A stretch of 64,000 nt of DNA from Sinorhizobium fredii USDA 257. GTDB taxonomy: Bacteria > Pseudomonadota > Alphaproteobacteria > Rhizobiales > Rhizobiaceae. A program made the translations under genes and the position numbers. The stretch covers positions 3,162,001 to 3,226,000 of the forward strand of contig NC_018000.1 in the NCBI RefSeq assembly GCF_000265205.3. Reading direction: 5' to 3'. Of the stretch, positions 1 through 18,718 are shown in pieces (position 1 is the stretch's first letter; each line of letters starts with the position of its first letter). The notes under the pieces are model-generated. The model made no database searches. It was given only the letters and a program-made list of their open reading frames with translations, and was not told the origin of the DNA.

Positions 1-5
1 GTGTC

Positions 6-2634: not shown

Positions 2635-2650
2635 GGCCAGCGGGCCGAAT
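2635..2650 (-). promoter_or_regulatory. 16-bp che/tad shared motif, copy 1
   Basis: Reverse-strand match to ATTCRGCCNGNTGGCY, 42 bp before the response-regulator start. Sequence seen, read on the minus strand: ATTCGGCCCGCTGGCC. Five further copies occur, all upstream of che or tad transcription units. The core GCC-N4-GGC is an inverted repeat, as expected for a dimeric regulator. Function is inferred. Confidence 0.55.
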
Positions 2651-2691
2651 TGATGGCCCGCGAGCGCCAGACAACCGGCGAGGAAAGCGTA

Positions 2692-3393
2692 ATGAATACC
2701 TCACGCGTCGCACTGATAGCCGATGATGATGAATTCTTCCGGATCGCGCTTGGCTTCATCTTGAAGAGCAAATTGCGGTTCACCGAGATTCTCGAAAGCG
2801 GCTCGCTCGATGAAGCTATTGAAAGGCTCAGCGAGCGCGAGGACATATCGCTGGCTTTGTTCGATTTGGCGATGCCGGGCATGCAAAGTGCTGCCAGCCT
2901 TGCCGCCGTGCGCGACATCCACCCGGATCTAAAGGTCGTCGTCGTCTCGGCATCGTCGCGCCGGTCGGACATTCTGTCTGCCCTCACTGCGGGCATAAAC
3001 GGCTATGTGCCAAAGGGCCTCGGCGCGAGCGAACTGGCCGAAGCAATTGGCGCGATTCTCAACGGCGCTGTCTACGTACCCCCGTCCATAGCGGGTCGGC
3101 CTTCTTCTTCCGAGGAAGCAGGGGTCTCTCAGGTCATCCGGGATACCCAGGACGAACGGGGCCATCGCACAATCGAATTCCTCACGCCGAGGCAGCGCGA
3201 GGTCCTCCTGCTCCTTGTACAGGGGTTCTCGAACAAGGAAATCGCCCGCAAGCTGAAACTCGGCGAGGGTACGGTGAAGATCCACATGGCAGCACTCTTC
3301 CGCAGTCTGCGGGTAAGAAACCGCCAGGAGGCCGCTGCCGCAGGAGCGCGCCTGTTACCCATGACCGAGAGCAGCAGTAGACCGGTCGGATAG
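2692..3393 (+). CDS. LuxR/NarL-family response regulator
   Basis: Two-domain response regulator of 233 residues. The N-terminal receiver has the acidic pocket (Asp11-13), phospho-acceptor Asp58 in LFDLAMPGM, the switch Ser in VVVSASS and the conserved Lys in YVPKG, so it should be phosphorylatable. The C-terminal LuxR-type helix-turn-helix begins at LTPRQREV and includes SNKEIARKL and GTVKIHM. The ATG at 2692 is chosen because GAGGAAAG lies 5-12 bases upstream; a longer in-frame start at 2626 lacks such a site. The gene sits just before the chemosensory operon and has the shared 16-bp motif upstream, so it is a reasonable candidate for the output regulator of the CheA here. That wiring is inference. 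Confidence 0.92.
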   Translation: MNTSRVALIADDDEFFRIALGFILKSKLRFTEILESGSLDEAIERLSEREDISLALFDLAMPGMQSAASLAAVRDIHPDLKVVVVSASSRRSDILSALTAGINGYVPKGLGASELAEAIGAILNGAVYVPPSIAGRPSSSEEAGVSQVIRDTQDERGHRTIEFLTPRQREVLLLLVQGFSNKEIARKLKLGEGTVKIHMAALFRSLRVRNRQEAAAAGARLLPMTESSSRPVG

Positions 3394-3404
3394 GCCGCCT
3401 GCTA

Positions 3405-3420
3405 AGCCATCCGGCCGAAT
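3405..3420 (-). promoter_or_regulatory. 16-bp che/tad shared motif, copy 2
   Basis: Reverse-strand copy, read as ATTCGGCCGGATGGCT, between the response regulator and cheR, 139 bp before the cheR start. It lies in a 165-bp gap that must carry the promoter of the che operon if that operon is not read through from the response regulator. Confidence 0.55.
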
Positions 3421-3558
3421 AGCCCAAATGCATGCGAGGACGTACTGACGACGGCAGAGCCACGAATTTAGGAAGAACATGCGCCAGCCTGTTTCGACAG
3501 CCAGCTTACCCGGACGCCCTCTTCGCGCCTGCGCGGCGAAAGAGGCAGGAGGCGTTCG

Positions 3559-4923
3559 GTGACAGGGCACGCGCTTCCGTCCAAGCTCGCTGACGAGGTC
3601 GCCTGCAGGGTCGGCCTCAGCCTTCCAACATCGCGAAAAGGCGCCGTCGCCTCGGCGATCGGCCGGGTTATGGCGCGGCGCGACATCGACGACAGCAGCC
3701 TATTTCTTAACCGGCTGGGGCTGGACCAGGACCTGACCGACGATGTCATCGCCGCGATCACGGTCGGAGAAACGTATTTCTTTCGGGATCCCGATCAATT
3801 CCAGCTGATATCGCAAGCAATCCTTCCGGAACTAAGGCGGCGGCGGCCCGACGGCTCTCTCGTGCGAATCTGGAGCATCGGCTGTGCAACGGGAGAGGAA
3901 CCCTACTCCCTTGCCATTCTCTGCGACGAGGAAGGTCTCCTGCAAGATGTTCGGATAAGTGCAGCCGACGTCTCCAGAAAGGCGCTCGCCGCGGCCAAGG
4001 CCGCAGAGTATGGCGAATGGTCGTTGAGGAATACGGACCGCAAGCTGAAGGACCGATATTTCACCTCAGGTGAGGGACGGTTTCGACTGAACGAACGATT
4101 GCGCCGGCAGGTCGATTTCGCTCACCTGAACCTTGGCGCAGTCGATCTACCGGCGCCGGAAAGGGGATTGGCTGACTTCGACTTGATCCTTTGCCGCAAC
4201 GTGCTCGTCTATCTCGATGCGAGTACGGTGCGGCGGATTGCGCGTCAGCTATTCGCCTGCCTTGCCGATGGCGGCTGGCTCTTGACGGCGCCGACCGATC
4301 CGCCCTTGTGGAAGTACGCCCCGTTCGAAACTTCCATCACGCCGGCGGGCGTTGTTTACCGGCGCATGATAGCTCATGGAGATACTCCCGGGGGCTCTAT
4401 CTCAGGCGTCGCCCCCATTCCATGCCAATCCAAAAGACCTGTCGCGCACGTGTCGGCCCCCCGAGCTTGCGTCACGGATGAGCAAAAAACGCCCGACGAC
4501 AAAGCCCTCAAGGCCATTGCCCGGCAAATCCGCTCGCGTTACGACATGGGTGAGACCCGGGAAGCTCAGCGCCTCGCTGCGCAGGCCGTTCAAAGTCATC
4601 CGCTCGCAGCGGAACTGCATTTCCTCCAGGGGCTCTCTCAGATGGCCGATGGGCAGACCGACGCGGCTGCGGCGGCGCTGCGACGGGTAGTCTATCTGGA
4701 CGGCAATATGGCGGCCGCGCAGTTCCTCCTCGGTGTCTGTCTCATGCACAGCGACCCGCAAGCGTCCCGGCGTGCGTTTGAAAACGTGCTGCATTTTTGC
4801 CTCTCTCGCCCGCCGCGCGAACGCGTCGCCCTGATGTCAGGGGCGACGGCTGGAGATCTGGCGGAGCGCGCACGGCGCGAGATCGGCAAAGTCCGGCGAG
4901 GGTGGGGGAGCGAACGCCCATGA
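3559..4923 (+). CDS. cheR: CheR-type chemoreceptor methyltransferase with TPR tail
   Basis: Predicted S-adenosylmethionine-dependent glutamate methyltransferase acting on the chemoreceptor. It has 454 residues: a CheR methyltransferase region over roughly the first 275, with the SAM-binding signature GCATGEEPYSL and the later LCRNVLVYLD, followed by a linker and tetratricopeptide-like repeats over about 325-440. Such TPR extensions are typical of CheR proteins in alternative (non-flagellar) pathways. The start is GTG, supported by AGGAGG a few bases upstream. The stop codon overlaps the cheW start (ATGA), indicating translational coupling. It is the first gene of a tightly packed operon cheR-cheW-mcp-cheA-cheB. 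Confidence 0.93.
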   Translation: MTGHALPSKLADEVACRVGLSLPTSRKGAVASAIGRVMARRDIDDSSLFLNRLGLDQDLTDDVIAAITVGETYFFRDPDQFQLISQAILPELRRRRPDGSLVRIWSIGCATGEEPYSLAILCDEEGLLQDVRISAADVSRKALAAAKAAEYGEWSLRNTDRKLKDRYFTSGEGRFRLNERLRRQVDFAHLNLGAVDLPAPERGLADFDLILCRNVLVYLDASTVRRIARQLFACLADGGWLLTAPTDPPLWKYAPFETSITPAGVVYRRMIAHGDTPGGSISGVAPIPCQSKRPVAHVSAPRACVTDEQKTPDDKALKAIARQIRSRYDMGETREAQRLAAQAVQSHPLAAELHFLQGLSQMADGQTDAAAAALRRVVYLDGNMAAAQFLLGVCLMHSDPQASRRAFENVLHFCLSRPPRERVALMSGATAGDLAERARREIGKVRRGWGSERP

Positions 4924-5582
4924 CGACACCTTCCCGCCCGGCCTCCCGGCCGGTCGACTGGACCGCCGTCAGAAGACGGATGGAGGCAGCGATAGAGCAG
5001 ACCGAAGTGCTTTTGGAAGCGGCACAGCCAGATGCGGCGGTGCGATACGAGCAATCACCGCGATCGGCCGGCGACGCGTTCGGCGGAAGAGAGCAAGCGG
5101 TCGGCCTTGTGACTTTCACACTATCGGATCGCCAGTTTGCCTTGGAGATCCTCTATGTTTGCGAAATCGTTTCGAAGCCACGCGTCAGTCCGCTGCCCGG
5201 AATGCCCTCGCACGCCTGTGGGGTTTATGAGTTGCGCGGGCAGTTGCTACCCGTCTTCGACCTGTGCGGACTGTTCGATCTCCCGCGGCCGGCCGCAACC
5301 GCCAGCGACTGGGCGATTGTATGCGGGCAAGCGCATCCCGAATTCTTGATCCTGTCCACGGCCGCCCCGGAAATAGTAACGCTCCCCCTGGAGGAAATCG
5401 GTGCGGCGGAGCCCGGCACGGGCGACAAGGCTTGGCATTGCGCAACGACGGAAACCGGCACGGTCATTCTGGACGGCCACCTTCTTTTGAACGATCGCCG
5501 ATTCTTTCTTGAGGACGAGCAGATCATCGCCAGCGGTGAGACGGAAAGGACCGAAATCCATGAGTCCCCGACTAACGAATAG
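4920..5582 (+). CDS. cheW: CheW-like chemotaxis coupling protein
   Basis: Adaptor of 220 residues that should connect the receptor to CheA. A CheW domain occupies about residues 60-190, seen in [13 protein letters not shown] and the later [13 protein letters not shown]. The N-terminal 60 residues are an extension not needed for the fold. The ATG at 4920 overlaps the cheR stop by 4 bases and is preferred to a longer open frame beginning at 4797, which would sit inside cheR. Its 3' end overlaps the start of the receptor gene by 23 bases, continuing the coupled arrangement of the operon. Confidence 0.9.
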
Positions 5583-7185
5583 TCTCTATGGCGCTTTGGG
5601 CTTGGCCATGCTGCTGTTCGTGGCCGCGTCGGCGCTGCTCGTCGGGTGGAGCTTTATTGCCCTGCAGCAGGTGCGAGCCGATCTTGCGGCGACATCGTCG
5701 CTTGGGACGCAACGCCTTGCCTACCAGCTGATCTATGTAGCCGGGCGCTTGGAAAGGGCGGAAGGCCCAGCCCGGATCGCTGCTGCCGATGAGCTTCGCG
5801 GCCTGATGGACCGCAACGAGCGGCTGCTTGCGAGTCTGGTCAATGGCGACGAAAGGTTCGGGCTGGAGGCAACGACGGATCCTGCTGCCCTCACGCAGCT
5901 GGAACAAGCCCGCCAACAATGGCGGGAACAGGTGAGGCCCGCTCTGGAAAGCGCTATCGCCAGCGCGCCGCTCGGGCACGAGGCACTGGATGAACTCGAC
6001 CCCAAGATCAGAGACTTTGCCGCGCGCATGGACGAATTGATCAATCGAATCGAGCATGCAGGAGTGGCTCGGCTCCAGCGCTCTCAATTGCTGCAACTGG
6101 GCTTTACGGTTCTCGCCGTTCTGATGCTGCTCCACGTGTTGCGGGTCGCGCGCCGCCTCGTCGCCCGCACGCGCAAGCTCGCCGGCGTGGCGGAAATGGT
6201 CAGCGCCGGTGACCTGACGCAGAAAGCTTCCGTAGAAGGCAGCGACGAACTCGCGGTCCTTGGCTTTTCCTTCAACGCAATGACGGCAAGGCTTGCCGGC
6301 ATGATCGACAATGAACGGAGCAGCAGGGAGAGGCTCGAAGAGCTGCTCGCCACGATCTCGGAAACGGCTCAACATCTTTCGTCATCCGCCGCCGAAATCC
6401 TCGCCGGAACCACGCAACAGGTCGAAGGCATGCGTGAGCAATCGTCGGCGGTCGCCCAGACGGTGACGAGCGTCGATGAGGTGCTCCAGACGTCGGAACA
6501 GGCGGCGCAGCGCGCGCAGCAGGTTGCTGCGTCGTACGATCAGGCCGTCAAGATCAGCAATGACGGCCGCAAAGCACTGGAAGATACCGTGCACGTGATG
6601 AACGCGGTGAGCGCCCGCACCGAAGGGATTGCCGGCGACATTCTTTCATTGGCGGAAAACAGCCTGGAAATCGGTGAGATCGTCACGGTCGTCGCCGAGA
6701 TCGCAGACCAAACGAACCTTTTGGCGCTGAATGCGGCTATCGAGGCATCGCGTGCAGGCGAGCACGGCAGGGGCTTCAGTGTCGTTGCCAGTGAGATCAG
6801 GACACTTGCTGACCAGTCGAAGTCCGCGACGACCCGAGTCCGTCGAATTCTGATGGAGATTCAGAAGGCGACGAATGCGGCGGTCATCGGCGCCGAGGAT
6901 GGCACGAAGAGTGTCAGCCGCGCCCTCGAGACGATGAACGAAGCGGGCGAAACGATCCGGCAACTCGAGGCGATCGTTGCCGATTCCGCGCGGTCGGTGA
7001 CCCAGATCGCCGCTTCGGCGGGCCAGCAAAGAGCGGGCATGAAGCAGATTCACGACGCGATGCATTACATCGAGCAAGCGAGCAGCCAGAATCTCTCGGC
7101 GATCCGGCAAGCCGAGGAGGCCGCGAAAGATCTCAACGAACTGGGCTCCAGGCTGAAGGAAATGCTCGCTGACCATGGCAACTGA
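5560..7185 (+). CDS. Methyl-accepting chemotaxis receptor
   Basis: Transmembrane chemoreceptor of 541 residues. Transmembrane segment 1 is near residues 12-35, a periplasmic region of about 150 residues follows, and segment 2 ([15 protein letters not shown]) leads into a HAMP domain. The C-terminal signalling domain carries the highly conserved hairpin tip with [19 protein letters not shown] and [15 protein letters not shown]. There is no C-terminal NWETF-like pentapeptide for tethering CheR or CheB. The ATG at 5560 follows ACGGAAAGGA and is preferred to an earlier in-frame start at 5509. The ligand is not identifiable. It is the only receptor in the operon and so likely the dedicated input. 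Confidence 0.93.
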
Positions 7186-9307
7186 CATGACCAAACCCGA
7201 CGAATTCGATCGTGAATTGCTGCAGATGTTCACTGAGGAAGTGAGGGAACGTGCATCCGACATGGAGCAGGCATTGCTCGCCATCGAGGACACCGGCGAG
7301 GCCGTCGAGAAACTCCGTCTGCAGGAACAGCTTCTAAGGACGGCGCACAGCCTCAAGGGCGCCGCCGGTCTGCTTCAAGTACGCGGCGTGGAGGCGATTT
7401 GTCACTGGATGGAAGAGATACTCTCCCTGACGGTGAATGAGCGGCTTGCGCTCGAAAAACCCCAGCTGGATCTTCTTCTGTCGGCCGCAGACGCAATCCA
7501 GGATGCGGCCCGCCTCTTGGAAATCGGCGAGATGCCTTCGCCGGCGCACGGCGAGAGCGTTGTCGATGCGTTGAAGGCTGCCGTGGCGGGAGGGGCGGAT
7601 CACGGCAGCGGCAAGCCGAATCTGCGTCCACCTCAGACGAGACAGGTACCCGTTCGCACCAGCGATACCGACGGCTCCATGCGCGTCTCCGCCGATCGTC
7701 TGGATACGCTTCTCTACAGGAGTGGCGAATTGTTGTCCTTTAACGCGATCATGCGGCGCCATGCCGAGGAGGCGTCACTGCTGCGCGAGCAGGCCAGAAA
7801 GCTACGGCGGGTAAGCCCCGAGTTTGCCGCACACGCGGCAGGTATCGAAAGCGGGCTGCGCCAGCTTGCGACATCGCTGCGAGGGGACATGAGACTGATG
7901 CACAGTGCCGCGACAGCACTTGATCACGAGGTACGGCACGCACGCACACAACCCTTTGCGCAGGCCTGCAAGGGGCTCGACCGTGTCGTGCGGGACATGG
8001 CGGCGGGATCGGGAAAATTGGCCGAACTTGAAATCAAGGGCGGAGAGATCGAGATCGATCGTTCCATTCTTTCGAGCCTGCAGGATTCGCTTCGCCACCT
8101 CGTGCGCAACGCAGTCGCGCATGGCATTCAGTCGCCCGAAGAACGCCGAAAGGCGGGAAAACCGGAAAGGGGAAGAGTCCTCATTGCAGCCGTCATCTCC
8201 GGAGACCGAATGCAGGTGCGTGTAGAGGATGACGGCCGCGGCCTGGATGTGGCTCGGCTCAGCAAGGCAGGGCCCGATCTGAAAGAGGTGAAAGACGAAG
8301 CCGAGCTCCTGCGGCGAGTTTTCGAGCCTGGCGTATCGACGTCGGCGAAGGTCACTAGCCTGTCAGGGCGCGGAATAGGCCTCGACATCGTCAAACGCAA
8401 TATCGAAACGCTGCGTGGCACGGCGGAAGTTTCGCAAGTATCGACGGGAGGCGCCGCCTTCACTCTTACAGTCCCCCTGACGCTGGCGACGGTGCGTGCA
8501 CTGGAGGTCATCGCCGGGGAGCATGTGTTCACGATCGACACGGCGTCGATCCAGCGGGTGATACGCATTGATGCGCCAGACTTCGCAATCTCTGAGGATA
8601 GGGGCATCGTCACCACCCCCACCGGCCCGATACCGTTCCTGGATCTTGCCAATTGGCTCGGACTGCGATCGGGCCGCGGCGATACCGGGCAGGCCGTGCC
8701 GGCGGTCGTGGTCGACGCTCCGGGCGGGCCGGTGGCGGTGCTCGTCGATGCTGTTGCCGGTGAGCAGGAACTCCTCGCACGCCCGCTCGGTCCGCGTCTC
8801 GCGAAAGTTCGTCGCTATAGCGCTGGCATGGTACTGGCCAACGGGCGCATTGCCCTCCTCCTGAACGTTGCAGCGCTCGCCGAGGCCGCCGCCGAGGCGC
8901 GGCCACCGGACGGCACAGCGGTGCCCGAGCCAGTTCCGGCCGCGCGTCGCAAGGTGCTCGTCGTGGACGATTCCAAATATGTACGAACGTTGGTGAGGCT
9001 CATCCTCGAGGGGGCAGGGTACGATGTCGCGATAGCAAGCAATGGCAAGGAGGCCTTCGAGCAGCTTCTTGAAGACGGTGCCGATATGGTCGTCGCGGAT
9101 GTCGACATGCCGTCCATGAATGGCTTCGAACTCACCGAGGCCATTCGTCAATCGGAGCGTTTCACCGACACGCCCGTTGTCCTCGTCACCGGCCGGGAAA
9201 CGCTTGAAGACAAGGTGCGGGGGCTGCGTGCTGGCGCAAACGCCTATCTGAGGAAGGATCAGTTCGATGCGCAGCACTTCCTGGAGACGATGCGCCGGGT
9301 CGTGTGA
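7175..9307 (+). CDS. cheA: CheA hybrid histidine kinase with C-terminal receiver
   Basis: Chemosensory kinase of 710 residues. Order of domains: HPt with phosphorylatable His58 in AHSLKGAAG; linker; dimerisation and HATPase region with [11 protein letters not shown] near residue 308, VEDDGRG and [10 protein letters not shown] near 400; a CheW-like regulatory domain at about 425-560; and a receiver at about 590-705 with VVDDSKYVR and an intact phospho-acceptor in [12 protein letters not shown]. No separate CheY-binding P2 domain is obvious. A fused receiver is common in alternative chemosensory systems, where it can act as a phosphate sink or intramolecular output. It overlaps the receptor gene by 11 bases. 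Its separate output target is probably the upstream LuxR-type regulator, by inference. Confidence 0.94.
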
Positions 9308-9315
9308 GGACGGGG

Positions 9316-10353
9316 ATGATACGTATTCTTCTTGCGACATCGACGCCCGACCTTGAAGAACGCGTCCGAAGGGCGGCTGAGGCCGACGCCGCCGTAGAGC
9401 TCGTGGGCGTCGCAAGAAGCGGCAAGGACGCGGTGAGGATGACCGGTAAACTCTTGCCGGACATCGTCGCCGTGGAACTCCGTGACGACGACACCGCCGA
9501 AACAGTCAGGGAGATCATGATCACCGCACCGACGCCAGTGGTCATGGTGGCCTACCAGGATGGTTCGCAGCTGGGAGCCATGTCCGCGCGCGCGCTCGAC
9601 TCGGGCGCGCTCGCGGTCATCCCGGCGCCGGCCGGGTCCGGCACGTCTCTCGAAAATGCGGCCCGCGAAAAGTTCCTGTCGACGATCAAGGCCATGGCGC
9701 AGGTCAAGGTCGTTCGCCAGTGGCGTAAGAAAACGCGCGGCGATTACGAGGTCAAAGAGGCACCGCAGCCTGCGGCCCAGATCGCGATCGTGGGCATCGC
9801 TGCCTCCACAGGAGGACCGTCCGCGATCCGTTCGATATTGAAGGATCTGTCCGCCAATTTTCCTGCACCCATCCTCATCGTGCAGCACATGTCGAACGGC
9901 TTCATCGAAGGCGTTGCCGCATCCCTCGACGCGACGATTGCGCTCAAGGTGAAAGTCGGTGCGAATGGCGAACGCCTGAGGCCCGGTACTGTCTACCTGG
10001 CCCCTGATGGCCATCAGCTCGGCGTCTCGGGCAAGTCGCGCCTACGTGTCGTGGACGACGATGCCATACAAGGCTTCAAGCCGTCCGGATCCTATCTATT
10101 CGGCTCGATTGCTCGCGCTTTCAAGGACGAGTCTCTTGCCGTCATCCTGACGGGGATGGGCGATGACGGCACCGAGGGCCTTCGGGCGCTGCACGTGGCG
10201 GGCGGGAAAGTGATCGCGCAGGATGAAGAAAGCTCCGTCGTCTTCGGAATGCCGAAATCGGCGATCTCGGCAGGTCTCGTCGATTTCGTCCTGCCGCTGG
10301 GCGATATCGCCGGGAAGATCGCTGCGCTGGCGAGCCGAACACGCGATCCTTGA
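9316..10353 (+). CDS. cheB: CheB methylesterase with degenerate receiver
   Basis: Predicted glutamate methylesterase/deamidase of the receptor, 345 residues. The C-terminal domain keeps the catalytic triad expected for CheB: Ser in GIAASTGGP near 165, His in QHMSNGF near 190, and Asp in GMGDDGTEG near 282. The N-terminal receiver is degenerate. The usual acidic pair after the first strand is replaced (ILLATSTPD), and the phospho-acceptor position reads VAVELRDDD, with Glu in place of Asp. Phosphorylation control is therefore probably lost or altered. The ATG at 9316 follows GAGGACGGGG; a GTG at 9304 overlaps the cheA stop and would add four residues. It ends the che operon and is convergent with tadC. 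Confidence 0.92.
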   Translation: MIRILLATSTPDLEERVRRAAEADAAVELVGVARSGKDAVRMTGKLLPDIVAVELRDDDTAETVREIMITAPTPVVMVAYQDGSQLGAMSARALDSGALAVIPAPAGSGTSLENAAREKFLSTIKAMAQVKVVRQWRKKTRGDYEVKEAPQPAAQIAIVGIAASTGGPSAIRSILKDLSANFPAPILIVQHMSNGFIEGVAASLDATIALKVKVGANGERLRPGTVYLAPDGHQLGVSGKSRLRVVDDDAIQGFKPSGSYLFGSIARAFKDESLAVILTGMGDDGTEGLRALHVAGGKVIAQDEESSVVFGMPKSAISAGLVDFVLPLGDIAGKIAALASRTRDP

Positions 10354-10464
10354 AAGCGAGGTGCGGCGCTCGGCATCGAACTTTACGCGCAGCGCCGCCC
10401 TTGCCCCACCCCAACTCTCGGCGTCCGGGCGCCGTATTCGTGAACAAACTGCTGCCGATCCCGC

Positions 10465-11433
10465 CTACAGACCCGTGATTTGAATGGCCGCCGGCGTGAT
10501 GATTACCGCAAATAGAACCGGCAGGAAGAATAGGATCATCGGCACGGTCAGCTTCGGGGGAAGCGCCGCGGCCTTCTTCTCCGCCTCGCTCATGCGCATG
10601 TCTCGGTTTTCCTGCGCCATCACCCGCAGCGCCTGGCCAAGCGGCGTCCCATATTTCTCCGCCTGGATCAGGCTGGTCACGACGGCGCGGACACCTTCTA
10701 CGCCGGTCCTCCGCCCCAGGTTCTCGAAAGCCTGCCGCCTGTCCTGCAGATAGGAAAGCTCGGCCGTCGTCAGCAGGATCTCCTCGGCCACCTCTGGCGA
10801 CTGTGCACCGATCTCCTCGCCCACTTTCCGAAGGGCGCTTTCGATGCCCATGCCGGATTCGACGGTGATCAACAGGAGGTCCAGCGCCTCCGGCCAGGAT
10901 CGGCGGATTACCTGCTGGCGCTTGGTGATCCTGTTCTGGATGAATATCGCCGGCGAGAAATAGCCGAGCGAACCAATAGCCCCGGCCATCGCAATGACCG
11001 CAATCAGCGGCGCCTCGGGCTGAAGGACGAGCAGCATATAAATGAGACAAGCGACAAAGAGCACAAGCGGAGCTATCAACCTGAAGGCAAGAAAGGTCGT
11101 GACCGGAGCACGACCGCGATAGCCGGCCATGCTCAGCTTGCGGAAGATTTCGCCATCCTCCGCCTGCTTGGCGAGATTGAAGCGATCGACAATCGCCTGG
11201 AAAAATCGCTTGGGCTCCGTGCGCAGGGACACCTTGCTCTTTTCGGCATTCAGCCGGATACGCTCACGCTGCCTGATGCGCTCCCGCTCGCTCTCCACCT
11301 TCCGCATCCGCTCCGCGAGAGTATCGCGGAAAACATAGGGCCATGAGACCGCCACGACGGCAGAAAAGGCGGCAATGCCAGCCAACATCGCGGAAAGCTG
11401 GTCAGGATCGGGGATGTGGGCGCCAAGGTTCAT
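10465..11433 (-). CDS. tadC: Tad pilus inner-membrane platform protein TadC
   Basis: Membrane component of the Tad/Flp pilus machine, 322 residues, of the type II secretion F-domain family (GspF/TadC). It has N-terminal hydrophobic segments, a cytoplasmic T2SSF region with ESGMGIESALRKVGEEIG and GVRAVVTSLIQAEKYGTPL, and a C-terminal membrane segment ending in TPAAIQITGL. It works with TadB as the platform on which the CpaF ATPase acts. Only 7 bp separate it from tadB upstream, so the two are co-transcribed at the end of the pilA-cpaF-tadB-tadC unit. It is convergent with cheB; the 111-bp gap between them contains no clear terminator. Confidence 0.92.
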   Translation of the reverse strand: MNLGAHIPDPDQLSAMLAGIAAFSAVVAVSWPYVFRDTLAERMRKVESERERIRQRERIRLNAEKSKVSLRTEPKRFFQAIVDRFNLAKQAEDGEIFRKLSMAGYRGRAPVTTFLAFRLIAPLVLFVACLIYMLLVLQPEAPLIAVIAMAGAIGSLGYFSPAIFIQNRITKRQQVIRRSWPEALDLLLITVESGMGIESALRKVGEEIGAQSPEVAEEILLTTAELSYLQDRRQAFENLGRRTGVEGVRAVVTSLIQAEKYGTPLGQALRVMAQENRDMRMSEAEKKAAALPPKLTVPMILFFLPVLFAVIITPAAIQITGL

Positions 11434-11440
11434 GTCGTTC

Positions 11441-12448
11441 TCAGAAATCGAAGTTGATCATTTTGCGCATGAGCAAAGTGCCTATGCTCATCCACAGGCC
11501 ACAGCCGACAAGCACCATCTTTCCGGCGAGAGTCGTGAACAGGAGCGACATGTAGTCGGGGCTGGTCAGATACACGGCGCCGGCGACGAAGAACGGCAAC
11601 GCGCCGATGATACCGGCGGAGGACTTCGCCTCCGCGCTCATGGCCTTGATCTTCGCCTTCATCTTCTTGCGCTCGCGCAGCACCTTGGAAAGGTTTCCAA
11701 GCGCCTCCGACAGGCTGCCACCGGTGCGGCTTTGAATTGTGATGACGATCGCGAAGAATTTGGCCTCGGGCAGGGGTATGCGATCGCACAGGCGCTCGAC
11801 GGCTTCGTCGACCGGCAGCCCCAGAGTCTGGTCCTGCGCGATGGTGAGGAATTCGCCCTTGACCGGCTCCTGCGCTTCCGCGGCAATCACCCTCAGGCAA
11901 TCGGTCATCGGCAGCCCTGCCTTGAGCCCCCGCACGATCACATCGACCGCGTTCGGAAACTCGGCAGTGAACCTCTTGAGCCGCATGTTGCGCTTCGTGT
12001 TCACATAGAGGTGCGGCAGGAACAGGCCGCCCGCGACGGCAAAGCCCAGTGTGGCGAGGGCGCCCAGTCCAAGGAGCGCTATCAGTACATAGGTGGCGAG
12101 GCCAGCGGCCGCGCAAACGAGCCAATAGGTTCTCGTCGACCAGCCGAGACCGGCCTGGCGGAGCCTGACGTCAAGCTTCGGCTTGCCGCCCTTGCGCGCA
12201 CGCGCCTTCTGCTGCTCGTCTATGTCGCGCAGCGTCTTTTCCACCGAGCGGCGACGGTCGCGGCGCTCCTCGTCGGCCGTTTCTGTCGCTTTGATTTCCG
12301 TGCGGCCGGCGACGCGCTCGAATCTTTGTCGATAGGCGCTGGCCTTAGCGGCCCGCGGATAGAACGCGGCGAGCATCAGGCCGCCGACGGAGGTCGACGC
12401 CAGAAAGAAGATGAGCACGGGAAACAGCGAAGCACTCAGCATGTCCAT
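11441..12448 (-). CDS. tadB: Tad pilus inner-membrane platform protein TadB
   Basis: Platform protein of 335 residues, paralogue of TadC. An N-terminal membrane anchor (LFPVLIFFLASTSVGGLML) is followed by a charged cytoplasmic region, two central membrane segments, and a T2SSF domain with LKAGLPMTDCLRVIAAEAQEP and SRTGGSLSEALGNLSKVL, then a C-terminal pair of membrane segments. The ATG at 12448 lies 45 bp from the cpaF stop. Operon position between cpaF and tadC is the standard Tad order. Confidence 0.92.
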   Translation of the reverse strand: MDMLSASLFPVLIFFLASTSVGGLMLAAFYPRAAKASAYRQRFERVAGRTEIKATETADEERRDRRRSVEKTLRDIDEQQKARARKGGKPKLDVRLRQAGLGWSTRTYWLVCAAAGLATYVLIALLGLGALATLGFAVAGGLFLPHLYVNTKRNMRLKRFTAEFPNAVDVIVRGLKAGLPMTDCLRVIAAEAQEPVKGEFLTIAQDQTLGLPVDEAVERLCDRIPLPEAKFFAIVITIQSRTGGSLSEALGNLSKVLRERKKMKAKIKAMSAEAKSSAGIIGALPFFVAGAVYLTSPDYMSLLFTTLAGKMVLVGCGLWMSIGTLLMRKMINFDF

Positions 12449-12492
12449 TCAGCCCTTTTTGAGATGCTGGGGGCGTCTCGGTGAAACGGCCG

Positions 12493-13917
<1,425 letters not shown>

Positions 13918-13967
13918 CGTTGTCGCTTCACTTGTCGTTGAGGTGTGTCTGCTCTTCAGATGCGATA

Positions 13968-13991
13968 GCGGAAGGCGATCATGCCTTCCGC
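13968..13991 (-). terminator. Stem-loop between pilA and cpaF
   Basis: Nine-base-pair perfect stem (GCGGAAGGC with GCCTTCCGC) and a 6-base loop just after pilA in the direction of transcription. There is no run of T after it, so it may be an attenuator or mRNA-stabilising element that lets pilin mRNA exceed cpaF mRNA, rather than a full terminator. Confidence 0.5.
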
Positions 13992-14026
13992 TTCGCTTGG
14001 CGACCGACGCTGTGATTTGGTCGCCT

Positions 14027-14188
14027 TTAGAGGGCAGCTGCGATCGCGTCGAACGCAGCGTCGACATCAGTGCCGACGGTCCGTACGGCGGTGATGATTG
14101 CTACGGCGATGAGGCCTGCGATCAGGCCGTATTCGATAGCCGTGGCACCGGATTCGTTGCGGACGAAGCGGACGAGAAGATTTTTCAT
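14027..14188 (-). CDS. pilA: Flp/Fap-type pilin
   Basis: Major pilin of a type IVb (Flp) pilus, 53 residues. The leader MKNLLVRFVRNESG ends in Gly14 and is followed by ATAIEY, matching the prepilin peptidase site with Glu at +5 and the Flp-typical Tyr at +6. The hydrophobic stretch GLIAGLIAVAIITAV forms the pilus core; the mature protein is about 39 residues. The ATG at 14188 has AAGGA upstream; longer open-frame extensions to 14389 are not supported. The prepilin peptidase CpaA is encoded at the other end of the locus. Two copies of the shared 16-bp motif lie in the divergent region upstream. Confidence 0.95.
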   Translation of the reverse strand: MKNLLVRFVRNESGATAIEYGLIAGLIAVAIITAVRTVGTDVDAAFDAIAAAL

Positions 14189-14316
14189 GAGACGATCCTT
14201 CAAGTGGGTTGAGGTAGCGCCGACGCCAAGTTCGGCATCACAGGTCGGGCCGGGATTTCTTTCGTTTCCCGCTTGCTGTGTGGCCTTGATATAGACTTTA
14301 TTAACCCTTCTGATCC

Positions 14317-14332
14317 ATTCAGCCTGATGGCC
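14317..14332 (+). promoter_or_regulatory. 16-bp che/tad shared motif, copy 3
   Basis: Reads ATTCAGCCTGATGGCC, 129 bp upstream of pilA in the region shared with the divergent secretin N-domain gene. It lies 35 bp (start to start) before copy 4 in the same orientation. Confidence 0.55.
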
Positions 14333-14351
14333 GATACTACTTCCGCGGTAG

Positions 14352-14367
14352 GATCGGCCTGTTGGCC
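14352..14367 (+). promoter_or_regulatory. 16-bp che/tad shared motif, copy 4
   Basis: Reads GATCGGCCTGTTGGCC, followed by TAGTCC, an extension also seen after copy 6. It lies 94 bp before the secretin N-domain gene and 164 bp from pilA. Confidence 0.5.
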
Positions 14368-14460
14368 TAGTCCAATCGTCCGGCCGCACTATCCTCTTGC
14401 TTTTGCCAGCCTTATTCGAACGGATGGCGCGTATCCGTTCACAGAGATCGGGAGCGAAAA

Positions 14461-14964
14461 ATGCGCGGGGTTCCGAGGCCTATAGGGGCAGGATGGCTTG
14501 TTCTCGCCTTGGTGGCCTGCACGGCCTTTGGCGCGGCGCAGGCGGCGGAAGATCGTCCGCCGAGCACGGCGCTGGAGCCGACCGGCCAGACCGAGGGCGT
14601 CGTCAAGGTCGTTGTCGATTTTGCAAGGCCGCTGATCCTCACCCGGCCGGCAAGCACGGTCATCATCGGCAATCCTGCCATCGCCCAGGCGACGCTCAGC
14701 GACGACAAGACTGTCATTCTGACCGGCAAGACGCCAGGATCGACGAACCTCATCGTCATGGATGCAGATGGTGCCGAGGTCGCCAACATCATCCTCGACG
14801 TTGTTGCAGCGGGCGGTCGCCTGATAACAGTTGACGGCGGCAGCGGCCGGTCGACCTACAGCTGCACGGAGCGTTGTGACCCGGTTCAATCCGGTGATGA
14901 AACGTCGACCCCTCCGCCGCCGAACAGCCCCGCTCCGCCGCTCAACGAAGGGGGCGAACCATGA
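14461..14964 (+). CDS. Secreted pilus-assembly N-domain protein (CpaC/RcpA N-terminal type)
   Basis: Secreted or periplasmic protein of 167 residues. A signal peptide (GAGWLVLALVACTAFGAAQAA) is followed by the domain found at the N-terminus of Tad secretins (PF13629 type): KVVVDFARPLILTRPASTV, IGNPAIAQATL, KTPGSTNLIVMD. It stops before any secretin barrel; the tail is Pro- and Ser-rich (PPPPNSPAPP). A usual CpaC protein is some 450-500 residues, so this is a stand-alone N-domain, not a complete secretin. It is divergent from pilA and convergent with the tadE gene (18-bp gap). It may help localise or gate a secretin encoded elsewhere; this is inference. Confidence 0.75.
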   Translation: MRGVPRPIGAGWLVLALVACTAFGAAQAAEDRPPSTALEPTGQTEGVVKVVVDFARPLILTRPASTVIIGNPAIAQATLSDDKTVILTGKTPGSTNLIVMDADGAEVANIILDVVAAGGRLITVDGGSGRSTYSCTERCDPVQSGDETSTPPPPNSPAPPLNEGGEP

Positions 14965-14982
14965 CCGGACTCGATCGATCGC

Positions 14983-15408
14983 TCAGCCGATCGGGATACG
15001 CCGCGAAAGGGCTAGGCTGAAAGGAGCCTCCGCCAGCCCGGGGATGAAAAACCTGAACGGGTAGCTGATCGACAAGACACGAAAATCAATCCCATCGACC
15101 GTTTGCTTGCTGACGGCAATTTGCAGCAGATCGGGATCGCCGCTGCCGAAATTGTCCCGCACGGCGCTCGCCAGCTTCGTCTGCGCCTCGCTGTCGGGCG
15201 CGTCGCGTGCGATCTGACCTATGAGCACCTGCCGGGCGGCAAAGTCGGCTGCATAGGACAGCTCGTTGCGCACGTAGAAAGCGCGGCCGAACTCGATGAC
15301 GCCAAGGATCAGCAGAAGCAGGGGCAAACAGACAATTGCGAACTCGACCGCCGTCGCGCCGGATTGGTTTCGCCAGGCGCGATGAAGGATGCGGAAAGAC
15401 AAGGTCAT
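14983..15408 (-). CDS. tadE: TadE-like pseudopilin
   Basis: Minor pilin-like protein of 141 residues in the Tad pathway. The N-terminal region RNQSGATAVEFAIV gives a prepilin-type cleavage site after Gly with Glu at +5, followed by a hydrophobic segment (CLPLLLLILGVIEFGRAFY). The start ATG at 15408 overlaps the stop of the upstream cpaE fusion gene (ATGA), so the two are translationally coupled. A longer frame to 15549 would run inside the upstream gene and is rejected. The protein should be processed by CpaA and take part in pilus assembly or anchoring. Confidence 0.88.
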   Translation of the reverse strand: MTLSFRILHRAWRNQSGATAVEFAIVCLPLLLLILGVIEFGRAFYVRNELSYAADFAARQVLIGQIARDAPDSEAQTKLASAVRDNFGSGDPDLLQIAVSKQTVDGIDFRVLSISYPFRFFIPGLAEAPFSLALSRRIPIG

Positions 15409-17147
15409 CGGACCTGTACCTGCATCAAGGAATTGAGCTGGAAGGGCGGAAGCGCCTCCGGCAGGGACATGGGCCGGTAATTCTTCGCCGCTTCGAGACG
15501 ATAGAATACGAGCTGCTGCGCCGCGTTCACGCAGGGTGTCGTCCCGCATTGCGGCGCCGCCTCAGGCTTGACATCAGCGTTTTCCGGGCAGGCGCAGTAA
15601 CGCTTCACCGGCGCCAGGGTGACATTGGCCGGCACGGCGCTTTGCGCCAGCGTCGACTGCAGCACCTTGTCGACCTGGGTCGCGCCGGGATCGGCCATGG
15701 CCGCTTGTGCCCCGGCGCGAAGCACGTGGTCGATCGTCATCCGCTCGTGCAGCGCCAGTGCAACATCGGCCATAGCGATGAGACCTAGCGCCAATACGGG
15801 CGCAAACAGCGCAAATTCCACAGCCGAGACCCCACTCTCGGACTTCTTCAACTCCTGCGCCTTCTTGCGAAGCCCGGCCGCTGCCTTCTGCTTTCGACGC
15901 TGCATGTATCTCTGCACCAGTCCTGGGAGCCCCTTCTTCCGCGTCCGCCTCTCCCTCGTGCCGCCGACCCGCCACGCAAGCGAGACGATGGCCTGCCCCG
16001 CCTTTGACTCGGGCGCCGACTCGATGATCAATTGGCCGTTATTGGCCGCCTTGCCGAACAGCTGCGGATCGAAAGGAACGCATACGCCTTCCTCCAGCCC
16101 GACTGCGGCAACGAAGTCCTTCGGCTTGATCTCTGCAAGCTTCGGCGTGTCTGTCCTATTCAGCACGAGTCTCGGTGGCGGATCGTTGGGGCGCGCCTTC
16201 TTCAGCAAATCGACCAGATTCTTCACGTTGCGCATCGAGGCCAAATCGGGCGTTGCGGTGATTACGATCTCGTCGGCCTCAAGCAGAATCTTTCGCGTCC
16301 ACTGCATCCAGATGTGCGGCAGATCGATCACGATTTGCCAGGAGCTGGACCGGGCGACATCGAGAAGATGGTCGACATGCTCCTCCTTGAGATAGAAGAA
16401 CCTGTTGAGGTCCGTTGTAGCAGGAAGCAGGTGCAGGTGCTCCGTGTAGGGCACCGCCAAACGTCGCAGCAGCACATCGTCCAGACGGTCGGGACTGCTC
16501 AGGACCTCCGTCATGCCTTGAACTGCCTCGACATCGAAATCGAGGCCGAGCGTGCCGAATTGAAGGTCGAGGTCGGCCACCAGCACATCGGCATCGACGC
16601 GCTTCGACATCGCATAGGCGACGTTGTGGGCGAGCGTCGAGGAACCGGTTCCGCCCTTGGCGCCGATAAAGGCGACGATGCGCCCGAGCTTCTCTTCGAC
16701 GGAGTCGCGAAAGCAGCGATGCACCGCCGCGACGAAGTCCATCGCTTCGAGCGGCATCACCAAGTAATCGCTGACGCCTGCATCCAGGAGCCTCTTGTAG
16801 AGGCCGACATCGTTAGAGCGGCCGACGACGAGAACCTTGGTGCCGGTGACGCACTCCATGGCGAGGGCTTCGAGCGCCATCATGAGACGATCCTCCTCGT
16901 CCGTGTCCTCGACGACGACGAGGTTCGGCGAAGTGACGCCGCCGTAAAGCGCCGTCGCCTCCTTTATCCCGCCTTGCTTGATCGTCACGGTGGCGCGCGT
17001 CATCCGGCGGTCGTTGGCCGCCGTGCGGACCGTCTCCGTCAACGCCTCTGAGCGGCAGAAGACGGCGACGTCTACCTTCGGGATGGACAAGAGCGGCGCA
17101 ACGGGCGCCCGCCGGGTCTCTTGGATATTGTTGCCGAGCTGTTTCAT
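15405..17147 (-). CDS. cpaE: CpaE-type ATPase fused to a TadE-like pseudopilin
   Basis: Protein of 580 residues. The N-terminal part is CpaE: a receiver-like domain (about 25-140) and a MinD/ParA-type ATPase with a deviant Walker A (FIGAKGGTGSSTLAHNVAYA) and VLVADLDLQFGTLGLDFDV. CpaE helps localise Tad pilus assembly. After a basic linker (about residues 405-430) comes a second module, SESGVSAVEFALFAPV, with a hydrophobic segment and about 130 further residues containing several Cys; this is a TadE/TadF-like pseudopilin with its own Gly/Glu(+5) cleavage site. The open frame is continuous, with no frame change at the junction. The ATG at 17147 is chosen over GTG 17156 because GGGAAAG lies just before it. 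It sits between cpaB and tadE. Confidence 0.85.
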   Translation of the reverse strand: MKQLGNNIQETRRAPVAPLLSIPKVDVAVFCRSEALTETVRTAANDRRMTRATVTIKQGGIKEATALYGGVTSPNLVVVEDTDEEDRLMMALEALAMECVTGTKVLVVGRSNDVGLYKRLLDAGVSDYLVMPLEAMDFVAAVHRCFRDSVEEKLGRIVAFIGAKGGTGSSTLAHNVAYAMSKRVDADVLVADLDLQFGTLGLDFDVEAVQGMTEVLSSPDRLDDVLLRRLAVPYTEHLHLLPATTDLNRFFYLKEEHVDHLLDVARSSSWQIVIDLPHIWMQWTRKILLEADEIVITATPDLASMRNVKNLVDLLKKARPNDPPPRLVLNRTDTPKLAEIKPKDFVAAVGLEEGVCVPFDPQLFGKAANNGQLIIESAPESKAGQAIVSLAWRVGGTRERRTRKKGLPGLVQRYMQRRKQKAAAGLRKKAQELKKSESGVSAVEFALFAPVLALGLIAMADVALALHERMTIDHVLRAGAQAAMADPGATQVDKVLQSTLAQSAVPANVTLAPVKRYCACPENADVKPEAAPQCGTTPCVNAAQQLVFYRLEAAKNYRPMSLPEALPPFQLNSLMQVQVR

Positions 17148-17172
17148 CTTTCCCACAATCCGTGAAAATCAA

Positions 17173-17964
17173 TCAGCTGCCACCGGAGCGGGACGGGACC
17201 TCGATCATCGAAAGTCGTCCACCACTAACAATGCGCACGACCCCTGGTCGGTTTCCTTCCGTCTCGACAACCGGCGCTTCGAGATTGTCGGCGACAGCCC
17301 GCAGCGCAAGCGACACGGTGCCGGAGGCTTCCGCCGCGGCGATGATGCCGATCTGCCCGGGGTCTGCTTCAAGCGTCGCGGTCTTGCCGACGACGGAGGT
17401 ACCATCGGCGCCCTCGGAAATGGTCTGATCGACCGCGAGCACCCGTATGTTGGAGAGGATCGCGCGGCTGACGACCTTACCGTCCTTTCCCGAGGAATCC
17501 GGCCGAGCGACGGTGTGGATTACGTCGACATGGTCGTTCGGCAGGATGAAGCCGCCGGCCGTGCTCTCCGCCGTGACGCGGACGGCGATCGCCCGTTTTC
17601 CCGAAGGCAGCATGCTGGACAGGAAACCGGCGCCGCGCTGGGCAAGCTTGTCTTCGCGGATAGGCTCTCCGGCGACGAAACTGCTCTGGGCGAGCAGCCC
17701 CTTGAGCGTCGCCACCGCGTCCGGCCGCGCGCTGCGGCTGATGAACACCGGCGGAATCTCGCCCTCCCACGCCTGCCAGCGCAGGTGGGTCTCATCGAGT
17801 GTCGTGCCGCGGGCCAGCTCGGCAGCGGCGACGAGCACCTCCTGGGTGGGGGCCCGTTGAACTTCGGCGGCTTCGACGGTCGGCGGATCGGTGAAGCCGA
17901 GCGCCAGCCAGGAGGCGGCACCGCCGGATGCGAGTGCGAGGAGGAGAATGACCAAGCGGATCAT
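17173..17964 (-). CDS. cpaB: Flp pilus assembly protein CpaB
   Basis: Periplasmic Tad component of 263 residues with an N-terminal signal/anchor (MIRLVILLLALASGGAASWL) and a SAF/CpaB domain: VLVAAAELARGTTLDETHLRWQ resembles the antifreeze-like SAF fold, followed by the RcpC/CpaB region with KRAIAVRVTAESTAGGFI and NDHVDVIHT. It probably supports the secretin or peptidoglycan passage. The ATG at 17964 places the signal peptide at the very N-terminus; a longer frame to 18069 would overlap cpaA and bury it. It lies 34 bp downstream of cpaA and 25 bp upstream of the cpaE fusion. Confidence 0.9.
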   Translation of the reverse strand: MIRLVILLLALASGGAASWLALGFTDPPTVEAAEVQRAPTQEVLVAAAELARGTTLDETHLRWQAWEGEIPPVFISRSARPDAVATLKGLLAQSSFVAGEPIREDKLAQRGAGFLSSMLPSGKRAIAVRVTAESTAGGFILPNDHVDVIHTVARPDSSGKDGKVVSRAILSNIRVLAVDQTISEGADGTSVVGKTATLEADPGQIGIIAAAEASGTVSLALRAVADNLEAPVVETEGNRPGVVRIVSGGRLSMIEVPSRSGGS

Positions 17965-17998
17965 GGCAGGACCTGTTTGTAAGGGGACTTCATTGCCT

Positions 17999-18511
17999 TC
18001 ATAGAAGGGCGGAGAACCAATGGCTTTCCGGCAGCAGCAGCAGCGCTGCGGGTGCCATCGCCGCACCATACGGAATGCCCGACTGCGGGGCGTGCAAGCG
18101 GCTCGACCAGGCTCGTTTCTGCAGGACGACCGGCAGCGGCACCTTGCGGAATTGCAGCAGCGAAAGCGTCAGAACCGCGCCAAGCACCGAAGCGTAGACG
18201 GCGAAGTGAAGGGCGAGGTCGGCACCGAGCCAGAGCACCGCGACCGGAAGCAGCTTTGCATCGCCCCCACCGATCCAGCCGAGTGCGAAAAACGTGAATG
18301 TGCAGGCGAGCACGGCGGAGGCTACGAGGATGCTCGACCAGATCGTCGAAAAATCGGCGCCGGCAAGCGGCGCGAGTACCGCGAAGGCGACCAGCAGAAA
18401 GCCGACGAGGCGGTTCGATATAGTCATCGTCGCCACGTCCTTGATGCCGGCATAGGTCATCGTTCCGGCAAAGAGTAAGAATGCGAGCCAAGCGGTAGTT
18501 GTGGAGATCAT
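17999..18511 (-). CDS. cpaA: Type IVb prepilin peptidase CpaA
   Basis: Membrane aspartic protease of 170 residues (A24 family) that cleaves the Flp pilin and TadE-like leaders. The two catalytic aspartates are visible in AGIKDVATMTISNRL and in GWIGGGDAKLLP, the GxGD motif. The protein is almost wholly hydrophobic with about six membrane segments and lacks the N-terminal methylase domain of PilD, as is usual for Tad systems. The ATG at 18511 (MISTTTAW) is chosen; a frame to 18580 adds 23 residues without support. It is the first gene of the cpaA-cpaB-cpaE-tadE unit and has two copies of the shared motif upstream. Confidence 0.92.
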   Translation of the reverse strand: MISTTTAWLAFLLFAGTMTYAGIKDVATMTISNRLVGFLLVAFAVLAPLAGADFSTIWSSILVASAVLACTFTFFALGWIGGGDAKLLPVAVLWLGADLALHFAVYASVLGAVLTLSLLQFRKVPLPVVLQKRAWSSRLHAPQSGIPYGAAMAPAALLLLPESHWFSALL

Positions 18512-18589
18512 CTCACGGGCGCCTTTCACGAGGGCCTGGAAGGCCGTTTCAAGTGCCGCGAAATATGCCGCCTGTAGCACCTGATCGCC

Positions 18590-18605
18590 ATTCGGCCTGA
18601 TGGCC
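18590..18605 (+). promoter_or_regulatory. 16-bp che/tad shared motif, copy 5
   Basis: Reads ATTCGGCCTGATGGCC in the divergent region between cpaA and the tadG-like gene, 79 bp from the cpaA start. Followed by TA as in copies 4 and 6. Confidence 0.55.
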
Positions 18606-18639
18606 TACGCGGACACTGCAAAACACATGGACAGGACTA

Positions 18640-18655
18640 GGCCAACCGGCTGAAT
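18640..18655 (-). promoter_or_regulatory. 16-bp che/tad shared motif, copy 6
   Basis: Minus-strand copy read as ATTCAGCCGGTTGGCC followed by TAGTCC, 64 bp before the tadG-like start and facing copy 5 across 34 bp. Confidence 0.55.
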
Positions 18656-18718
18656 CGCAACTGGCCCTGGGCCGGGATATATCCTCCGGCCTGAACACAA
18701 GCACTCCAGGACACTCGG

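What the first reader, a model, noticed from the sequence alone, without database searches (positions are those of the whole stretch)
2635..18655. A 16-bp motif found six times, only at che and tad promoters
ATTCRGCCNGNTGGCY occurs at 2635, 3405, 14317, 14352, 18590 and 18640 (16 bp each; copies at 2635, 3405 and 18640 on the minus strand; copy 4 starts GATC). The sites precede the LuxR-type regulator, the che operon, the pilA/secretin-N-domain pair and the cpaA/tadG pair. Every one is in a non-coding gap, and pairs occur at the two divergent regions. The GCC-N4-GGC core is an inverted repeat. The simplest view is a binding site for one regulator, possibly the LuxR-type response regulator itself, making chemosensory signalling and Tad pilus genes one autoregulated regulon.
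Basis: partly seen in the sequence, partly recalled or inferred. Interest (0 to 1): 0.8.

Follow-up and report, generated by a model that had tools for sequence, protein, structure and literature searches.

The report
Shared switch site for pilus and chemosensors
A short DNA landing site, kept at the same promoters in many root-nodule bacteria and their relatives, most likely lets one signal-activated regulator switch on a surface-attachment pilus together with the chemosensory genes beside it, which bears on how these bacteria decide to stick to surfaces.

Summary
The motif is real: five exact copies and one with 2 mismatches lie where stated, in intergenic gaps; shuffles give 0.02 exact copies per window. 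The genome (Sinorhizobium, near S. fredii) holds 8 exact copies, 5 of them here.

The site is kept at pilA, cpaA and tadG in 22 of 22 loci (Sinorhizobium, Mesorhizobium, Nitratireductor, Chelativorans) and at cheR in 20 of 21. It points one way relative to its gene, with a -10-like hexamer about 22 bp downstream: class II activator geometry.

The likely binder is the neighbouring NarL-type response regulator (RR). The site follows RR orthologues into other settings: Microvirga Tad loci without che, an RND efflux operon in 12 of 12 sampled genomes of one genus, palindromic forms at kinase or cellulose genes. It is scarce (4 of 56) in Tad loci without an RR hit.

The RR's own upstream copy is poorly kept (5 of 22), so RR autoregulation is not supported; control of the che operon is. 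No binding, start-site or expression data were available. CheA as phosphodonor is inference.

The parts
14317..14332 (+). site 3, pilA-proximal operator (reads toward pilA on the minus strand)
   Evidence: exact match; site in 22 of 22 loci, scores 22.0-26.6
14288..14293 (-). -10-like hexamer TATATC of the pilA promoter, 23 bp from the site
   Evidence: sequence; spacing analysis
14352..14367 (+). site 4, pilA-distal operator, 35 bp upstream of site 3 (GATC start, 2 mismatches)
   Evidence: second site scoring 14 or more in 19 of 22 loci
18590..18605 (+). site 5, cpaA operator (reads toward cpaA)
   Evidence: exact; 22 of 22 loci at 18.9 or more; best R1 hit of the genome
18562..18567 (-). -10-like hexamer CATATT of the cpaA promoter, 22 bp from the site
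18640..18655 (-). site 6, tadG operator (reads toward tadG)
   Evidence: exact; 22 of 22 loci at 15.9 or more
18678..18683 (+). -10-like hexamer TATATC of the tadG promoter, 22 bp from the site
3405..3420 (-). site 2, che-operon (cheR) operator, between the RR gene and cheR
   Evidence: exact; 20 of 21 loci with a CheR match at 12.9 or more
3443..3448 (+). weak -10-like hexamer TACTGA, 22 bp from site 2
   Evidence: its class score is low (0.13)
2635..2650 (-). site 1, marginal copy upstream of the RR gene
   Evidence: exact but 13 or more in only 5 of 22 loci; not listed by R1
2692..3393 (+). NarL/LuxR-type response regulator (receiver + GerE domain), proposed binder
   Evidence: Pfam PF00072 and PF00196; nearest solved structure NarL; start codon chosen by me
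1..2519 (+). PAS-GGDEF-EAL protein (1087 aa in all, starts before the window)
   Evidence: L033:11257-14520
3559..4923 (+). cheR
4980..5582 (+). cheW
5560..7185 (+). chemoreceptor (HAMP, MCP signalling domain)
7187..9307 (+). cheA with C-terminal receiver domain
9316..10353 (+). cheB
10465..11433 (-). tadC (T2SSF)
11441..12448 (-). tadB (T2SSF)
12493..14067 (-). cpaF/tadA ATPase
14027..14188 (-). pilA/flp pilin
14461..14964 (+). secretin N-domain-only protein (cpaC-like)
14983..15408 (-). tadE
15405..17147 (-). cpaE ATPase followed by a TadE domain
17173..18069 (-). cpaB/rcpC
17999..18511 (-). cpaA prepilin peptidase (start ATG 18511 by inspection)
18719..20014 (+). tadG

Best explanation
The motif is the operator of the NarL/LuxR-type response regulator encoded at 2692-3393. 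The phosphorylated RR would bind as a dimer to the inverted repeat TAGGCC-N4-GGCC(G/T)A. At the pilA, cpaA, tadG and cheR promoters the site is held about 22 bp upstream of a -10-like hexamer, so that its centre is near -44 and it takes the place of a -35 element: the RR would recruit RNA polymerase as a class II activator. pilA has a second, weaker site 35 bp further upstream. The result is one regulon: the flp-2-type Tad pilus operons (pilA-cpaF-tadB-tadC, cpaA-cpaB-cpaE-tadE, tadG) and the che operon, so that the chemosensory genes are themselves a target. Shown here: the sites, their conservation, orientation and spacing, and their co-occurrence with RR orthologues in unrelated gene settings. 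Inferred: binding, activation, the start sites, and that the neighbouring CheA supplies the phosphoryl group (no separate histidine kinase gene lies next to the RR in this window, unlike in several relatives).
For: Exact copies far above chance. PWM hits at pilA, cpaA and tadG in 22 of 22 loci, at cheR in 20 of 21 loci with a CheR match. A -10-like hexamer at spacer 22 (pilA 23): 0 of 20000 random phase shifts reach the observed mean, with 7 or with 5 promoter classes. Genome-wide R1: the 9 hits with E<0.3 are the sites at pilA (two), cpaA, tadG and cheR, the two at 470 kb and the two at 2560 kb. RR link: the PWM, built before these loci were seen, found the site in 11 of 11 RR loci of genus g27; with G192, whose RR is cut by a contig end, all 12 have site - MFP - RND in order, and the site is the best R1 hit in 12 of 12 (R1 contains three g27 sites, so this ranking is partly by construction). 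Microvirga L068-L070: RR, Tad genes and sites, no CheA hit in the fetched stretch. Perfect TAGGCC-N4-GGCCTA three times in 15 RR loci against 0.1 in shuffles, upstream of HK-RR (L168) and at the RR stop codon (L165, L166). Tad loci: 23 of 24 with RR have a hit of 16 or more, 4 of 56 without RR. In genus genomes 27 of 28 with RR have an exact copy within 25.5 kb of it; the 28th, G018, has R1 sites beside its flp-2 cpaE. Recognition helix and receiver acid residues are kept among the Sinorhizobium and Phyllobacteriaceae RRs.
Against: No binding, expression or start-site data. The cheR and g27 -10-like hexamers are weak; in g27 spacer 38 scores better than 22, and at the two 470-kb classes spacer 20 or 1 does. 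The -10 weights were recalled, not trained. The rows are related, so counts and Fisher values are not independent. Two genomes without a detected RR keep sites: G023 (99% complete, a pair 34 bp apart before a cytochrome b561 gene) and G030 (70% complete). Several RR orthologue loci show no convincing site: of the 17 non-g27 RR loci only 2 had a hit of 16 or more. 12 of the 24 order genomes with the 18-mer had no RR at E<=1e-38, one of them (G192) only because the RR is cut. The 18-mer was written, so it is not blind to g27.
Confidence: 0.8

Rival explanations
1. The site is bound by a different regulator (for example a VisNR-like LuxR protein or another factor encoded elsewhere), and the RR is only a passenger of the cluster.
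For: No binding data. G023 and G030 keep sites without a detected RR. Papers that hold both VisN and Tad pili exist for Liberibacter (search listing only).
Against: The site goes with RR orthologues into Tad-without-che, RND-efflux, kinase and cellulose settings; the RR is the one DNA-binding protein that I saw in all of them. The other Tad locus of the genus (CpaE about 40% alike) has no R1 hit at E<=0.3 on its contig in G005, G018, G023, G026 and G029.
Confidence: 0.12
2. The site is bound by the RR, but as a repressor site rather than a class II activator site.
For: A dimer over the -35 region could equally exclude RNA polymerase; P. aeruginosa PprB activates tad but represses its own gene (PMC6821963, passages).
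Against: The hexamers that a -35 element would occupy do not look like TTGACA (sequence), which suits promoters that need an activator; the second site upstream of the first at pilA also suits activation.
Confidence: 0.15
3. The motif is a GC-rich hairpin, terminator or mobile repeat rather than an operator.
For: GGCC-N4-GGCC could form a short stem; in L165 and L166 the perfect palindrome starts at the RR stop codon.
Against: Four of the six copies sit between divergent genes (pilA/cpaC-like, cpaA/tadG) where no transcript should end, no T-run follows them, the -10 spacing is fixed, and exact copies are few in the genome.
Confidence: 0.03

Closest known systems
PprA-PprB control of the tad locus in Pseudomonas aeruginosa
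   Same: A response regulator directly controls Tad pilus genes (passages of PMC6821963).
   Different: The PprB site quoted there is GGCTAATAC, not GGCC-N4-GGCC; no che operon is named as a target in the passages I saw; PprB represses its own gene, whereas RR autoregulation is not supported here.
S. meliloti flp-2 Tad cluster with the adjacent ACF chemosensory cluster on pSymA
   Same: Same genes and operons (pilA2-cpaF2-sma1564-sma1562; cpaA2-cpaB2-cpaE2-sma1572) beside cheR, cheB, cheW, mcpS and cheA-REC (passages of PMC10934763 and PMC8429497).
   Different: Those passages leave open when the cluster is expressed and whether the che system controls the pili; they name no response regulator or operator, and 'luxr' occurs 0 times in the main text of PMC10934763.
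NarL / ErdR-type response regulators
   Same: Receiver plus GerE helix-turn-helix; best NCBIfam hits are NarL and ErdR, far below their cut-offs; NarL is the nearest solved structure.
   Different: Operator GGCC-N4-GGCC; the NarL heptamer site is recalled, not looked up.

Membership tests
NarL/FixJ (LuxR-type) response regulator | receiver domain and C-terminal GerE domain | tested here: met
   PF00072 and PF00196 above cut-off
NarL/FixJ (LuxR-type) response regulator | acidic pocket and phospho-acceptor Asp | tested here: met
   ADDDEF and FDL(A/T)MPG kept in all 22 rows of Sinorhizobium and Phyllobacteriaceae (window, L044-L064); two Microvirga rows (L068, L069) differ in the pocket
NarL/FixJ (LuxR-type) response regulator | binds an inverted repeat as a dimer | not testable with these tools
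   the site is an inverted repeat; binding not measured
PprB-type tad regulation | PprB recognition site (GGCTAATAC) at the promoters | not tested
   the conserved element found is GGCC-N4-GGCC; no search for the PprB site was run
ACF chemosensory class | cheR, cheB, cheW, one receptor, cheA fused to a receiver domain, no cheY in the operon | tested here: inconclusive
   gene content fits and the S. meliloti counterpart is called ACF (PMC8429497 passage); no class-specific model was run
Tad/Flp (type IVc) pilus | Flp pilin, CpaF ATPase, TadB/TadC, CpaA, CpaB, CpaE, TadE/G | tested here: met
Tad/Flp (type IVc) pilus | own outer-membrane secretin | tested here: not met
   only a 167-aa secretin N-domain protein at 14461-14964 among the 20 genes scanned
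class II activated promoter | activator site over the -35 region at fixed distance from the -10 element | tested here: inconclusive
   spacer 22 (pilA 23) at pilA, tadG, cpaA and cheR, weaker in g27; start sites and activation not measured

The most novel reading that the evidence does not exclude
An ACF chemosensory array has captured a NarL-type regulator: CheA, not a dedicated histidine kinase, phosphorylates the RR, which switches on both the Tad pilus and the chemosensory array itself, a positive loop that makes surface attachment an all-or-none decision. The RR belongs to a Rhizobiales family that carries its own operator (TAGGCC-N4-GGCCTA) from target to target (Tad pili, RND efflux, cellulose genes).
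Probability: 0.35. Interest if true: 0.72.

Novelty: new variant of a known kind. Interest (0 to 1): 0.55.

Why it matters
It gives a concrete, mutable operator and a named candidate regulator for the flp-2 Tad pili of rhizobia. A 2024 paper on S. [quoted passage not shown] If right, a chemosensory array would act through transcription of a pilus and of itself instead of through a motor. The regulator family also shows how one operator can be moved between very different targets.

Tried and rejected
Terminator or repeat reading: rejected (see rivals). RR autoregulation: the 2635 copy is not kept. Decayed pilA copy: I first took the 2560-kb site (L032) for a pilA remnant; one search showed that 7 of the 20 fetched regions have a like promoter site before a homologue (57-86%) of the 118-aa gene, so it is better read as a promoter of that gene, perhaps copied from pilA. 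Recurring R1 hits L217-L220 are coding and were dropped; L214, L216 and L222 were also labelled coding. Those labels come from my own crude ORF caller, which also marked some likely promoter sites as inside short ORFs. The repeat finder on L165, L166 and L170 gave mostly chance palindromes. A search for a published GGCC palindrome of a NarL-family regulator gave 4 papers, none on this by title (listing). Genes were called by my own script, which took the wrong strand in the GC-rich g27 loci; these were redone by ORF composition. Limits: one search kept the best 80 of 502 confirmed relatives; saw 397 genomes drawn from a larger order; one search printed 30 of the 80 loci. No structure prediction was run.
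Full report
Observation. Shuffles of the window give 0.02 exact copies. In the whole genome (7.03 Mb) there are 8 exact copies, and 0 for the pattern read backwards; with up to one mismatch 34 against 9. The window is from a Sinorhizobium close to S. fredii: the best named match of TadC is S. fredii USDA 205, 95%.

Setting. The genes are PAS-GGDEF-EAL, the response regulator (RR), cheR, cheW, a chemoreceptor, cheA with a receiver domain, cheB, then tadC, tadB, cpaF and pilA on the minus strand, a secretin-N-domain protein, tadE, cpaE with a TadE domain, cpaB, cpaA, and tadG. This matches the flp-2 cluster with the ACF chemosensory cluster described for S. meliloti pSymA (passages of PMC10934763 and PMC8429497).

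Conservation. In the window and 21 named loci (L044-L064) a 12-seed weight matrix finds the pilA-proximal, cpaA and tadG sites in 22 of 22 (scores at least 22.0, 18.9 and 15.9), a second pilA site of 14 or more in 19 of 22, and the cheR site in 20 of 21 loci with a CheR match (12.9 or more; L064 has none, L059 has no CheR match). The site upstream of the RR reaches 13 in 5 of 22 and 14 only in the window. In L058 the TadG entry is a differently placed tadG copy. The seeds come from these loci, so the scores are not blind; the matrix was not given the positions or the spacing.

Geometry. All six copies point the same way relative to the gene served. Read toward the gene the consensus is CTAGGCCATCNGGCYGAAT. 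A -10-like hexamer follows at spacer 22 for tadG, cpaA and cheR and 23 for pilA. Averaged over seven promoter classes the peak is at 22, and 0 of 20000 random phase shifts reach it, likewise with five classes. The cheR and g27 hexamers are weak, and in g27 (38), the Excalibur class (20) and the small-ORF class (1) another spacer scores best. The centre of the palindrome then lies near -44 if the start is about 7 bases behind the hexamer (inference). No TTGACA-like element is present at the -35 place in the window sequences (by eye).

Who binds. The RR has an orthologue (E<=1e-38) in 29 of 397 genomes of the order. I fetched the surroundings of the 28 outside this genome. All 11 loci of genus g27 carry a site of 16 or more; of the other 17, two do. 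In g27 the genes are quite different: site, membrane-fusion protein, AcrB-type RND pump, RR, and a convergent dCache hybrid kinase. With G192, where a contig end cuts the RR, 12 of 12 have site, MFP and RND in that order, and this site is the best model hit in each of the 12 genomes (model R1 holds three g27 sites). Microvirga loci L068-L070 have RR, Tad genes and sites but no CheA hit in the fetched stretch; two of them keep a pilA site pair 34-35 bp apart, at lower scores (14.5-15.5). In three of five f2 genomes a palindromic form precedes a dCache hybrid kinase followed by the RR; in L165 and L166 (two of three f42 loci) perfect palindromes start at the RR stop codon, in L165 upstream of bcsS and a cellulose-synthase-like gene. 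Over 15 such loci there are 3 perfect and 6 at-most-one-mismatch palindromes, against 0.1 and 1.1 in shuffles. In Tad loci, 23 of 24 with the RR have a hit of 16 or more (L068 falls just short), and 4 of 56 without; one shuffle of L065-L123 (1.02 Mb) gave 4 hits, so the 4 are about what chance gives.

Genus survey. 28 of 33 genomes have the RR at over 300 bits. 93 exact motif matches occur in the 33 genomes, 2 for the reversed pattern. 48 of the 93 lie within 25.5 kb of the RR, in 27 of the 28; G018 has model hits next to its flp-2 cpaE instead. 39 lie elsewhere in RR-bearing genomes and 6 in the five genomes without the RR. The five genomes that I compared for the second, flp-1-like Tad locus (G005, G018, G023, G026, G029) have no R1 hit at E<=0.3 on that contig. 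Of 20 further regions that I read, seven have the site before a homologue of the 118-aa gene, two have it upstream of an Excalibur gene (in L210 with a YbjQ-like ORF between), one before a second flp copy (L212), one before a serralysin-like protease (L215). Seven were labelled coding (L214, L216-L220, L222), one is an intergenic hit without a clear target (L221), and L205 (G023, no RR) keeps a site pair before a cytochrome b561 gene.

Interpretation. I think the RR is the binder (about 0.85), as a class II activator (about 0.7), making pilus and che genes one regulon. The loop is onto the che operon, not onto the RR gene. Phosphorylation by CheA is a guess from the lack of a neighbouring kinase gene in this window while several relatives have one. 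Papers: of PMC10934763, PMC8429497, PMC6821963 and PMC3616915 I saw passages only; the other papers only as search listings. In the held library the listings of my searches showed no report of this operator or regulator that I could recognise; most subscription papers are not held.

Noticed in passing
window 14461-14964 and 15405-17147: The Tad locus has only a 167-aa secretin N-domain protein, no secretin, and its CpaE carries a C-terminal TadE domain.
   Followed up: partly
L031:9739-10618 (genome C1 about 470 kb): Two exact sites facing each other between an Excalibur-domain gene and a 34-codon ORF, beside SNF2/RapA-like and DEAD helicases; an Excalibur gene lies downstream of a site in L210 and L211 too.
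   Followed up: partly
L032:9580-10200: A promoter very like that of pilA, with two sites, precedes a conserved 118-aa gene of no Pfam family; homologues with the site in L203, L204, L206-L209 and L213.
   Followed up: partly
window about 3479-3562: By eye, a 27-codon ORF between the cheR promoter and cheR seems to overlap the cheR start codon, as in translational coupling.
   Followed up: no
L165:10310-14058: RR orthologue upstream of bcsS and a cellulose-synthase-like gene, with a perfect palindrome at the RR stop codon.
   Followed up: partly
L170:2981-13255 and L171: RR orthologue between a large hybrid kinase (weak dCache match in L170) and a roughly 2000-aa protein; in L170 this has animal-haem-peroxidase and RTX repeats. 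No convincing site found there.
   Followed up: no
L205:1943-2010: G023, no RR detected, keeps a pilA-type site pair.
   Followed up: partly
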